Below, one piece after another: positions 26,767-64,000 of a DNA stretch of 64,000 nucleotides. The DNA comes from a bacterium (GTDB lineage Bacteria; Bacteroidota; Bacteroidia; B-17B0; Aurantibacillaceae). How positions within the stretch are numbered: the first letter of the stretch is position 1; every line of letters starts with the position of its first letter. Position numbers and translations under genes: made by a program. The notes below the pieces were generated by a model. The model was given only the letters and a program-made list of their open reading frames with translations, did no database searches and was not told where the DNA came from. The DNA lies in contig JAQSCW010000010.1 in the NCBI GenBank assembly GCA_029945625.1, positions 219,815-283,814 on the forward strand. The letters run 5' to 3'.

Positions 26767-26768
26767 AG

Positions 26769-26842
26769 CCAATTGACGATTTATTCATTGACGATTTACG
26801 ATTTTGGTCGTCAAACTAAATTTAAAAATCGTAAATAATATT
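26769..26842. repeat. Heptamer-based GATTTAC/GATTGAC repeat with internal hairpin (nuoB/nuoC junction)
   Basis: TTGACGA TTTATTCA TTGACGA TTTACGA...; perfect 12-bp stem ATTTACGATTTT (26794-26805) / AAAATCGTAAAT (26825-26836). Confidence 0.8.
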
Positions 26843-26846
26843 TGAA

Positions 26847-33335: not shown

Positions 33336-33381
33336 AAGTTAAAAGGCAGAAGTTAGAGGTTAGAACGCAGAAGTTAGAAGT
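33333..33381. repeat. Tandem degenerate heptamer YAGAAGT x7, beginning with the nuoI stop codon
   Basis: TAGAAGT TAAAAGG CAGAAGT TAGAGGT TAGAACG CAGAAGT TAGAAGT read directly in 7-nt phase. Confidence 0.8.
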
Positions 33382-33421
33382 AAAGAGAATAGATATAAAA
33401 ACGATTTAAAGAGGTGGGAGA

Positions 33422-33463
33422 AAATCTTAAATCTTAAATCTTAAATCTTAAATCATAAATCAA
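33422..33463. repeat. Tandem heptamer AAATCTT x4 + AAATCAT + AAATCAA immediately before nuoJ
   Basis: Direct reading in 7-nt phase; reverse complement is GATTTAA-type. Confidence 0.9.
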
Positions 33464-33465
33464 TT

Positions 33466-33978
33466 ATGTTAGGTTACACAATCACACAATGGGTTTTCGG
33501 AATACTCTCCTTTTTGGCGATCATGTTCGCCTTAATGGTGGTCTTCAGTCGCAATCCGGTTAATTCTGTTCTATACCTGGTATTAACTTTCTTTTGTATT
33601 GCAGGGCATTACCTGGTGCTGAATGCTCAGTTTTTGGCGGTGGTGCACATTGCGGTGTATGCCGGCGCAATCATGGTTCTGTTTTTATTCGTGATTATGT
33701 TAATGAATCTGAATCAGGACACCGAACCTCAAAAAACCACCATTTCAAAAATCATTGCCGGAGTAATAGGCGGCATGCTTTTGCTGGTGCTTGTGGGAGT
33801 ATTAAAGGGAACCGAACAAATTCAGTTAAGTCAGTATGGCCACAGCGAAATAGGATTGGTGAAGAACTTAGGAAATGTGTTGTTTAAAGAATTTTTGTTT
33901 CCATTTGAAATTGTGTCGGTGTTATTACTCGCCGCATTGGTAGGGGCTATTATGATTGGGAAGAAGGAGATTAAATAA
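33466..33978 (+). CDS. nuoJ: NADH-quinone oxidoreductase subunit J
   Basis: FALMVVFSRNPVNSVLYLVLTFFCIAGHYLVLNAQFLAVVHIAVYAGAIMVLFLFVIMLMN. Confidence 0.95.
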   Translation: MLGYTITQWVFGILSFLAIMFALMVVFSRNPVNSVLYLVLTFFCIAGHYLVLNAQFLAVVHIAVYAGAIMVLFLFVIMLMNLNQDTEPQKTTISKIIAGVIGGMLLLVLVGVLKGTEQIQLSQYGHSEIGLVKNLGNVLFKEFLFPFEIVSVLLLAALVGAIMIGKKEIK

Positions 33979-34421
33979 TTTACGATTGACAAATTTACAA
34001 TTGACGATTGCATGAGCATTACACCCGAAATAATGAAATCCAGGTCCTTTCGATTTGCTTTAAGTACATTGAGAGTAATTGATAAGCTAAATGGCTCTGT
34101 CGCAAATGACATTATGGGTCGACAAGTGATGCGTTCGGCGACATCGGTTGGAGCGAATTACAGATCAGCTTGTAAGGCAAAATCTACTGCGGATTTTATT
34201 AATAATTTGAAAATAGTGGAAGAAGAGGCTGATGAGTCGGTGTATTGGCTTGAATTGATAAAGGAGTTTAATAGCGTGCAAAGTGAAGAGTTTGAAGCTT
34301 TACTCCGCGAATCAAAGGAATTGGATCGGATTTTTTCCAAATCAGCCATTACAGCGAAGAATAATAATAAGATTAAATGAAGTACCAATCGTAAATTGTC
34401 AATTAAAAAATCGTCAATAAA
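33970..34421 (+). mobile_element. Putative inverted-repeat-bounded cassette carrying a four-helix-bundle gene, inserted between nuoJ and nuoK
   Basis: Left repeat about 33970-34011 and right repeat about 34386-34421; gene-proximal ends match as inverted repeats at 17 of 19 bases (CAATCGTCAATTGTAAATT vs CAATCGTAAATTGTCAATT). Confidence 0.6.
34012..34380 (+). CDS. Four-helix-bundle protein (S23 / 23S rRNA intervening-sequence protein family)
   Basis: MGRQVMRSATSVGANYRSACKAKSTADFINNLKIVEEEADESVYWLELIKE matches the family hallmark (QxxRSxTSxGAN...DFI...EAxExxYWL). Confidence 0.9.
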   Translation: MSITPEIMKSRSFRFALSTLRVIDKLNGSVANDIMGRQVMRSATSVGANYRSACKAKSTADFINNLKIVEEEADESVYWLELIKEFNSVQSEEFEALLRESKELDRIFSKSAITAKNNNKIK

Positions 34422-34435
34422 ACTGAGTTAGACCT

Positions 34436-34747
34436 ATGATTAACGGAATTTCCATAAACATGTACCTGATGCTGAGCACCGTCATTTTTATTATTGGTGC
34501 CATAGGTGTGATGGCCAGAAGAAACACCATTATTATTTTTATGTGCATTGAATTAATGCTTAACGCAGTGAATCTTCTGCTGGTGGCATTTAGCACGCTG
34601 CATAACGATGGCAGCGGACAAGTTTTTGTATTTTTTGTAATGGCTGTGGCGGCCGCTGAGGTTGCGGTGGGCTTGGCAATATTGAGTATGATTTACAGAA
34701 ATGTAAAAAGTATTGATACGGATATTTTGGGGAATTTGAAAAATTAA
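34436..34747 (+). CDS. nuoK: NADH-quinone oxidoreductase subunit K
   Basis: GVMARRNTIIIFMCIELMLNAVNLLLVAFS, VFFVMAVAAAEVAVGLAI. Confidence 0.95.
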   Translation: MINGISINMYLMLSTVIFIIGAIGVMARRNTIIIFMCIELMLNAVNLLLVAFSTLHNDGSGQVFVFFVMAVAAAEVAVGLAILSMIYRNVKSIDTDILGNLKN

Positions 34748-38169: not shown

Positions 38170-38244
38170 TTTACGATTGATAGAATTGACGATTTACGAT
38201 TGCTGTGTTGTCGTAGATTGTAAATAATAAAATCGTCAATCATA
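38161..38244. repeat. GATTTAC/GATTGAC repeat with terminal pairing (nuoM/nuoN junction), gene-less
   Basis: ATTGACGATTT (38185-38195) pairs with AAATCGTCAAT (38230-38240); left 20 bp ATTAAATAATTTACGATTGA identical to 33970-33989. Confidence 0.8.
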
Positions 38245-38260
38245 AAAAGGAAATAAAAAT

Positions 38261-49436: not shown

Positions 49437-49619
49437 GTTTCGGATTTCAAAGGCTTTTGCTAACAGAGCGACGAGAGATCGAGTTGTGTCCTTCTTTTTA
49501 GGGCATGCATGTAAACCCTCAGCAACCTTTGTGGTTTTTAGTTTCAGGTTTCGAGTTATGGGTTAAATGCTGCCTAAGCTTTCTGCAAATTGCCTACTGC
49601 CTACCGATTACGATAAAGT

Positions 49620-49925
49620 CCCTTAGTGTTTCTGAAAGTGCTTAGTGTCTTAGTGTTTCCTGCCAACTGCCAACTGCCAACTGCCAACTGCCCACCGCCA
49701 ACTGCCAACTGCCAACTGCCAACCGCCAACTGCCCACCGCCCACCGCCTCCTGCCTACTTAAAACTTATCTCAGTGTTTCTTCGTGTTCTAAGTGCCTTA
49801 GTGGTTTCTGTTAACTGCCAACTGCCAACTGCCAACTGCCTACTGCCTACTGCTCCTGCCAACTGCCCCTGCCAACTTAAAGCTTTTCTTAGTGTTCCCT
49901 TGTGTGCTAAGTGTCTTAGTGGCTC
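49620..49925. repeat. Compound repeat: alternating TTAGTG-type nonamer modules and GGCAGTT/TGCCAAC heptamer arrays
   Basis: 14 consecutive TGCCAAC-like heptamers at 49661-49758, a second array at about 49809-49877, separated and bounded by CTTAGTGTNTC...AAGTGNCTTAGTGG modules. Confidence 0.9.
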
Positions 49926-49931
49926 TTGAGA

Positions 49932-63632: not shown

Positions 63633-64000
63633 ATGGCAATTGTAGAATTAAAAGTTCCCAGCCCGGGTGAATCGATCACAGAGGTGATCATTGCACGCTG
63701 GGTAAAAAATACCGGTGATATTGTTCAAAAAGATGAGGTATTGGCGGAAGTGGATTCCGACAAAGCTACTCTCACTTTAAATGCCGAAGAAGCAGGTAAA
63801 ATTGAAGTGCTGGTACCCGAGGGAGAAACGGTGAAGGTGGGACAGGTGGTGGTGAAAATAGACACTTCGTTTAAGGTTGAAGCTAAGGTTGAGGTTAAGA
63901 AGGAGGCAGAAGGCAGTGGGCAGTCGGCTGCTAGCAGTGAGCAGTCGGCAGTGAATAGTAAGCCATCGGCAGCGAGCAGTGGGCAGTCGGCGGTTTCCGG
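63633..64000 (+). CDS. sucB: Dihydrolipoyllysine-residue succinyltransferase (E2), N-terminal lipoyl domain and linker (3' truncated by window edge)
   Basis: Own translation from ATG 63633: MAIVELKVPSPGESITEVIIARWVKNTGDIVQKDEVLAEVDSDKATLTLNAEEAGKIEVLVPEG...; follows sucA; open to window end and absent from the ORF track. Confidence 0.93.
   Translation, partial: MAIVELKVPSPGESITEVIIARWVKNTGDIVQKDEVLAEVDSDKATLTLNAEEAGKIEVLVPEGETVKVGQVVVKIDTSFKVEAKVEVKKEAEGSGQSAASSEQSAVNSKPSAASSGQSAVS
63905..63995 (+). repeat. 13 tandem degenerate heptamers (RGCAGTS) within sucB linker coding sequence
   Basis: GGCAGAA GGCAGTG GGCAGTC GGCTGCT AGCAGTG AGCAGTC GGCAGTG AATAGTA AGCCATC GGCAGCG AGCAGTG GGCAGTC GGCGGTT in uninterrupted 7-nt phase. 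Confidence 0.85.

What the first reader, a model, noticed from the sequence alone, without database searches (positions are those of the whole stretch)
33970..34421. Inverted-repeat-bounded four-helix-bundle gene inserted inside the nuo operon
Seen: a 123-codon gene with the S23/IVP four-helix-bundle signature lies between nuoJ and nuoK, where complex I operons normally have no extra gene. It is flanked by GATTTAC/GATTGAC-type repeats in opposite orientation, with gene-proximal arms matching at 17 of 19 bases. Gene-less copies of the repeat occur at two other nuo junctions (nuoB/C and nuoM/N). Established: S23-family proteins are encoded in intervening sequences inserted in 23S rRNA of some bacteria, and the related Avd protein works with diversity-generating retroelement reverse transcriptases. 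Inference: this is a small mobile cassette whose only gene is the four-helix-bundle protein. The repeat-only copies would be its non-autonomous or decayed forms. It encodes no recognisable transposase, so the mobilising mechanism is unknown.
Basis: partly seen in the sequence, partly recalled or inferred. Interest (0 to 1): 0.72.

Follow-up and report, generated by a model that had tools for sequence, protein, structure and literature searches.

The report
Gene cassettes framed by seven-base repeats
A small four-helix-bundle gene slipped between two respiratory-complex genes belongs to a widespread class of inserted gene cassettes, in at least six bacterial phyla, that sit between facing arrays of seven-base repeats; this links two unexplained things, bacterial seven-base repeats and the "intervening sequences" of ribosomal RNA.

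Summary
A 122-aa IVP/S23 gene (PF05635, TIGR02436) sits between nuoJ and nuoK, flanked by inverted repeats. At nuoJ/K it is present in 6 of 27 readable congeners; the others are nearly all short empty gaps. The idea of one fixed repeat arm is not right: every cassette has its own heptamer, tandemly repeated and inverted across the gene. In 64 congeneric loci, 78 loci from other named genomes, 26 loci from four further genomes and 19 cyanobacterial plasmid loci, left and right arms match each other far better than other loci's arms (z 20, 18, 15, 9). Lag 7 is the unique best period in 63-94% of arms against 9% of ordinary intergenic gaps. Arms differ between orthologous junctions yet stay matched. 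The 5' arm is G-rich in 130 of 147 cassettes and in gene-less hairpins (10:0). A classical 23S rRNA IVS (Azospirillum) has the same arms. The proteins are under purifying selection (dN/dS 0.13-0.23). G·U pairs are not enriched over A·C mismatches, so the arms look maintained at DNA level. Best reading: IVS-type selfish cassettes, mostly inherited, often lost, rarely relocated, linked to heptamer-hairpin spread. Mobilising enzyme unknown.

The parts
33466..33978 (+). nuoJ, upstream host gene
   Evidence: ORF; C-terminus conserved at this junction across the genus
33979..34011 (+). 5' (left) heptamer arm TTTACGATTGACAAATTTACAATTGACGATTGC, units of the type (G/A)ATT(T/G)AC
   Evidence: complementarity to right arm score 36 against shuffle mean 13.2, 0 of 3000
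34012..34380 (+). IVP/S23 four-helix-bundle gene, 122 aa
   Evidence: PF05635 2e-16, TIGR02436 1.6e-22, PDB 2RLD 7.7e-19; nuoJ/K orthologues median dN/dS 0.16
34386..34424 (+). 3' (right) heptamer arm, CAATCGTAAATTGTCAATTAAAAAATCGTCAATAAAAC and following base, inverted relative to the left arm
34436..34747 (+). nuoK, downstream host gene
   Evidence: ORF; used to find the orthologous junctions
26767..26846 (.). gene-less inverted heptamer hairpin in the nuoB/nuoC gap, same heptamer family
   Evidence: p=0.009; z -1.6
38170..38260 (.). gene-less inverted heptamer hairpin in the nuoM/nuoN gap, same heptamer family
   Evidence: p=0.0007; z -2.4
33338..33462 (.). two further heptamer arrays of other sequence (GAAGTTA type, AATCTTA type) in the nuoI/nuoJ gap

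Best explanation
This is an IVS-type selfish cassette: one IVP gene between two convergent, locus-specific arrays of 7-base units, placed in the short gap between two operon genes where it breaks nothing. The same architecture occurs at dozens of other operon junctions, in at least six phyla, and in a 23S rRNA intervening sequence (shown). Cassettes are inherited at a junction, often lost, and sometimes relocated (partly shown). The inverted arrays can fold into a DNA hairpin or cruciform; I infer that the IVP protein, a four-helix bundle kept by purifying selection, acts on such hairpins together with host replication or repair enzymes. Slippage and copying between arms would then keep the two arms matched and let them grow in 7-base steps, and would seed gene-less hairpins elsewhere (inferred). 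The mobilising enzyme is unknown.
For: Occupied and empty nuoJ/K sites. Arms pair with their own partner: genus set obs 2459, permuted 1521 +/- 47; 78 loci z 17.9; four other genomes z 15.0 and cyanobacterial plasmids z 8.9. Same-orientation controls show little or nothing. Co-change of arms at orthologous junctions: 1848 against 1622 +/- 50, 0 of 10000 permutations. Period 7: 67/78 left and 73/78 right, control 5/77; intergenic control 9%. 5' arm G>C in 42:7, 54:8, 21:1, 13:1 cassettes and 10:0 gene-less hairpins; this polarity is unchanged by reverse complement, so gene orientation does not impose it. G.U no commoner than A.C among arm mismatches (0.486 and 0.485, 95% limits about 0.40-0.58), which favours a DNA-level process. 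More IVP genes go with more 7-mer arrays: Spearman 0.76, p=0.003 (13 genomes); 0.58, p=0.018 (16 genomes, looser detection); other periods show none. GATTKAC pairs are commoner in genomes with a nuoJ/K cassette of that heptamer, also outside the nuo contig (p=0.0012). dN/dS 0.13-0.23. 23S rRNA IVS with heptamer arms.
Against: Nobody has seen IVP bind or move DNA; no catalytic domain and no excision or circular form is shown. The general test that arm k-mers are enriched in their own genome was not significant (p=0.36). A relocated gene (G009:C67:14670) has arms unlike those of its parent clade, so arms may belong to the site rather than to the gene. Two cyanobacterial cassettes (Pseudanabaena galeata, Oscillatoria) have arms in the same orientation. 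The IVP/array correlation rests on 13-16 genomes sampled in part and is not corrected for phylogeny; the GATTKAC comparison has the same weakness.
Confidence: 0.5

Rival explanations
1. RNA-level intervening sequence: the arms pair in the operon transcript, the stem is cut by RNase III as in 23S rRNA IVSs, and selection on RNA pairing keeps the arms matched.
For: Same architecture as the 23S IVS; Coxiella's IVS has heptamers GACAGAT at its 5' end and is cut by RNase III in vitro (PMC4990558); cassettes are nearly always co-oriented with the operon: 59/64 and 63/75 with both neighbours; the RNA fold of the window cassette joins the arms (z -2.0).
Against: No G.U excess over A.C mismatches in the arms, which selection for RNA stems should give; some cyanobacterial cassettes lie antisense to their neighbours. 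Processing may still happen without being what maintains the arms.
Confidence: 0.25
2. The heptamer arrays are an independent slippage-prone repeat class and IVP genes merely insert into, or survive best in, inverted heptamer hairpins (arms belong to the site, not to the element).
For: Gene-less hairpins exist; a relocated IVP has new arms; heptamer over-abundance in bacteria has been ascribed to polymerase slippage (Mrazek 2007 as cited in PMC4679880); two direct-orientation cases.
Against: Array density follows IVP number; orthologous junctions lacking the gene mostly lack any array, so the arrays come and go with the gene.
Confidence: 0.15
3. A host-beneficial regulatory gene of the operon (for example tuning nuoJ/nuoK stoichiometry).
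For: Purifying selection; co-orientation with the operon.
Against: Absent from most congeners at this junction; the same family sits in many unrelated junctions (pdh, suf, sdh, parE-type, nuoF/G, cas6/cas4).
Confidence: 0.05
4. An Avd-like partner of a diversity-generating or other reverse transcriptase acting in trans.
For: Structural homology of the family to Avd (PMC10053308).
Against: No PF00078 match in this genome or in 28 of the 40 other genomes searched, many of them with several IVPs.
Confidence: 0.03

Closest known systems
23S rRNA intervening sequences with an S23/IVP ORF (Leptospira, Coxiella, Azospirillum)
   Same: Same protein family, similar size (about 430 nt), ORF enclosed by inverted ends; in Azospirillum and Coxiella the ends carry tandem heptamers.
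   Different: Here the cassette lies between protein genes of an operon; excision from RNA not shown; arms are locus-specific and appear maintained at DNA level.
REPIN/RAYT systems
   Same: A gene flanked by inverted short repeats, with gene-less paired copies elsewhere in the genome (known families; PMC3116915 found, not read).
   Different: No Y1/HUH transposase; repeat sequence differs from cassette to cassette; tandem 7-mers rather than one REP sequence.
Heptameric repeats of cyanobacteria, Xanthomonas (GGGAATC) and Beggiatoaceae (TAACTGA)
   Same: Same 7-base period, same phyla in part, and in Xanthomonas the same convergent G-rich inverted pairs (PMC4692102). X. campestris also encodes an IVP, Xcc0516 = PDB 2GSC.
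   Different: The main texts mention no S23 or four-helix gene; they propose regulation or G-quadruplexes.
DGR accessory protein Avd
   Same: Homologous four-helix bundle (PMC10053308).
   Different: No reverse transcriptase in this genome; no template/variable repeats seen.
23S_rRNA_IVP genes in cas loci
   Same: Reported next to cas4 and cas6 (PMC3936711); seen here in Pseudanabaena and Anabaena 90.
   Different: Read there as a function associated with CRISPR-Cas; here they look like one more operon-gap insertion with heptamer arms.

Membership tests
IVP/S23 protein family (PF05635, TIGR02436) | Profile match above curated cut-off | tested here: met
   60.6 bits vs 33.8; 79.7 vs 24
23S rRNA IVS | IVP ORF enclosed by complementary ends | tested here: met
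23S rRNA IVS | Located in a 23S rRNA helix | tested here: not met
   between nuoJ and nuoK; met by the relative in L152
23S rRNA IVS | Excised from RNA by RNase III | not testable with these tools
   needs RNA data
REPIN/RAYT | Y1 (HUH) tyrosine transposase encoded between the repeats | tested here: not met
   the only gene between the arms is the IVP
REPIN/RAYT | Gene-less paired repeats of the same sequence in the genome | tested here: inconclusive
   nuoB/C and nuoM/N hairpins; GATTKAC excess p=0.0012, but the general own-genome test gave p=0.36
Classical IS/MITE transposon | Constant terminal inverted repeats | tested here: not met
   arms differ between loci
Classical IS/MITE transposon | Target-site duplication | tested here: inconclusive
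   empty gaps too short and diverged to tell
Diversity-generating retroelement (Avd) | Reverse transcriptase in the genome | tested here: not met
   0 matches to PF00078 in G000
Heptameric short tandem repeats (STRR type) | Tandem units of 7 nt | tested here: met

The most novel reading that the evidence does not exclude
IVP is part of a repeat-adding system: G-rich heptamers are added to the 3' ends of both sides of a DNA break, as telomeres are extended, and the ends are then joined with or without an IVP gene between them. This would explain the 7-base units, the locus-specific sequences, the matched arms, the convergent G-rich polarity in gene cassettes and gene-less hairpins alike, and the gene-less hairpins themselves.
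Probability: 0.08. Interest if true: 0.95.

Novelty: new variant of a known kind. Interest (0 to 1): 0.76.

Why it matters
Heptameric repeats have been reported as over-abundant and unexplained in cyanobacteria, Xanthomonas and other bacteria, and S23/IVP proteins have had no settled function since the 23S rRNA intervening sequences were described. The searches here show that the two go together across phyla, with matched, convergent, G-rich arms. That gives both problems one testable model with defined genes, defined substrates and natural empty sites, and offers an alternative reading of IVP genes in CRISPR loci.

Tried and rejected
Fixed terminal repeats: rejected, arms are locus-specific. 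Reverse-transcriptase partner: disfavoured. Selection for an RNA stem as what maintains the arms: not supported by the mismatch test. General enrichment of each cassette's heptamer in its own genome: not significant, although single cases look strong (G000 CAGTTGG type, G001, G020). Homogenisation of arms across junctions of one genome: none seen (23.4 vs 23.0). Phages as carriers: tblastn with one cyanobacterial IVP found no phage record. The first related-loci run failed because the alignment was too diverse; a single protein worked. Target-site duplications could not be judged. No structure was predicted because 2RLD and 2GSC already cover the fold.

Full report
What is there. Between nuoJ and nuoK lies a 122-aa gene of the IVP/S23 four-helix-bundle family. 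Its flanks are inverted repeats made of 7-base units of the type (G/A)ATT(T/G)AC; left and right arm match with score 36 against a shuffled mean of 13.2, 0 of 3000 shuffles as high.

It is an insertion. nuoK located the junction in 31 congeneric genomes; 27 could be read automatically. Six carry an IVP gene: G000, G001, G003, G010 and G016 with similar GATTTAC-type arms, and G045 with different arms. G021 carries a gene-less heptamer hairpin (TAGTGTT type). Most of the others have a gap of about 20-40 nt from the nuoJ stop to the NuoK motif; two gaps are longer (67 and 78 nt). A further genome, G011, has an IVP match beside a nuoK fragment on a short contig.

The arms are a general feature of the family but never one sequence. 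TIGR02436 was sought in 41 genomes, and 35 have it. 62 congeneric genes were fetched with their flanks, and the window gene and the G045 gene were added for 64. They sit at recurring junctions: pdhA-type/E2, nuoJ/K, nuoF/G, sufB/C, next to a sigma54-regulator-type gene, next to a topoisomerase-type (parE-like) gene and others; these gene names are my reading of the neighbouring translations. Cognate left/right arm complementarity exceeds other pairings (2459 against 1521 +/- 47). Among 78 loci from named genomes found by one scan, mostly Bacteroidota with Balneolaceae, Ignavibacteriae, Melioribacteraceae and Stahlbacteria members, the same test gives z 17.9, and lag 7 is the unique best period in 67 of 78 left and 73 of 78 right flanks, against 5 of 77 controls. 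With narrower 90-nt windows the fractions are 63-64% for the genus set and 74% and 94% for the 78 loci; ordinary intergenic gaps give 9%. Four other genomes (Stahlbacteria, Ignavibacteriae, Balneola, Melioribacteraceae) give z 15.0, and 19 cyanobacterial plasmid loci give z 8.9. Single loci in Treponema, Gemmatirosa and Riemerella show heptamer flanks by eye. In Azospirillum lipoferum the IVP lies in a 23S rRNA gene (RF02541) and its ends are GGACAGA-type inverted heptamers; the Coxiella IVS has GACAGAT heptamers (PMC4990558).

Arms co-change. At the same junction in different congeners the heptamer differs, yet each left arm fits its own right arm better than those of its orthologues (1848 against 1622 +/- 50, 0 of 10000 permutations). 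The IVP tree puts most junctions in one clade each, so the genes are mainly inherited. A few lie inside another junction's clade: G009:C67:14670 within the parE-type group and G012:C6:29038 within the glcF-type group, which indicates occasional relocation. The relocated genes have arms of other heptamers (read by eye).

DNA or RNA. If selection for an RNA stem kept the arms matched, G.U pairs should outnumber A.C among mismatches. They do not (70 vs 74 and 81 vs 86). The 5' arm is G-rich in 130 of 147 scorable cassettes and in 10 of 10 scorable gene-less hairpins. Because this polarity is unchanged by reverse complement, it is not a consequence of gene orientation. Rehm et al. describe 70 and 75 pairs of convergent G-rich heptamers in two Xanthomonas genomes (PMC4692102), the same polarity; X. 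campestris encodes the IVP Xcc0516 (2GSC). None of the papers found links heptamers outside rRNA to IVP genes; subscription journals and preprints were not covered.

Link to gene-less arrays. IVP gene number correlates with density of lag-7 arrays in sampled sequence (Spearman 0.76, p=0.003 in 13 genomes; 0.58, p=0.018 in 16 genomes with a looser detector); other periods show no correlation. Pairs of GATTKAC units are commoner in the six genomes with a nuoJ/K cassette of that heptamer (G011 counted among them), also after hits on the nuo contigs are removed (p=0.0012). A general version of this test over 20 cassettes was not significant (p=0.36). These comparisons are not corrected for phylogeny.

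The protein matters. dN/dS among orthologues is 0.13-0.23 in five junction groups, with many pairs saturated. The Coxiella authors judged S23p expendable in that species (PMC4990558); in this genus it is conserved.

Mechanism. Shown: IVP gene, matched inverted heptamer arms, operon-gap insertion, purifying selection, arm co-change, polarity, association with gene-less arrays. Inferred: IVP acts on the hairpin at DNA level with host enzymes, and slippage plus arm-to-arm copying keeps arms matched. Not shown: any enzymatic activity, excision or integration. An RNA-level IVS remains the main rival, since cassettes are nearly always co-oriented with their operon (59/64 and 63/75).

Verdict. The finding is real and larger than described; the interpretation as a small mobile cassette is partly right. 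It is a new variant of a known kind, the IVS, found outside rRNA with a repeat architecture that appears not to have been connected with it before.

Noticed in passing
window 49583-49930 and 63897-63991: Other heptamer arrays (CTGCCAA type and GGCAGTC type); the CTGCCAA/GCAGTTG heptamer is also that of the arms of another IVP cassette of this genome (G000:C32:45630, L001/L067).
   Followed up: partly
window 33338-33462: Two arrays with different heptamers (GAAGTTA, AATCTTA) side by side in the nuoI/nuoJ gap, with no gene.
   Followed up: no
L144 and L265: In two cyanobacteria an IVP gene lies between cas6 and cas4 (type I-D cas1d next to it in Anabaena 90); in Pseudanabaena the flanks are long AAAAGCT and AAAAGCC arrays in the same orientation.
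   Followed up: partly
L146 and L149: IVP cassettes lying antisense between two neighbouring co-oriented genes (nrdB/nrdA in Nostoc edaphicum; secretion genes in Calothrix 7716).
   Followed up: no
L110 (G021 nuoJ/nuoK): Gene-less inverted heptamer hairpin exactly where congeners carry the IVP cassette; the heptamer resembles that of the same genome's pdh cassette.
   Followed up: partly
L269 and L276: IVP genes of Nostoc commune HK-02 and Pseudanabaena PCC 7367 plasmids without clear heptamer arms; exceptions worth study.
   Followed up: no
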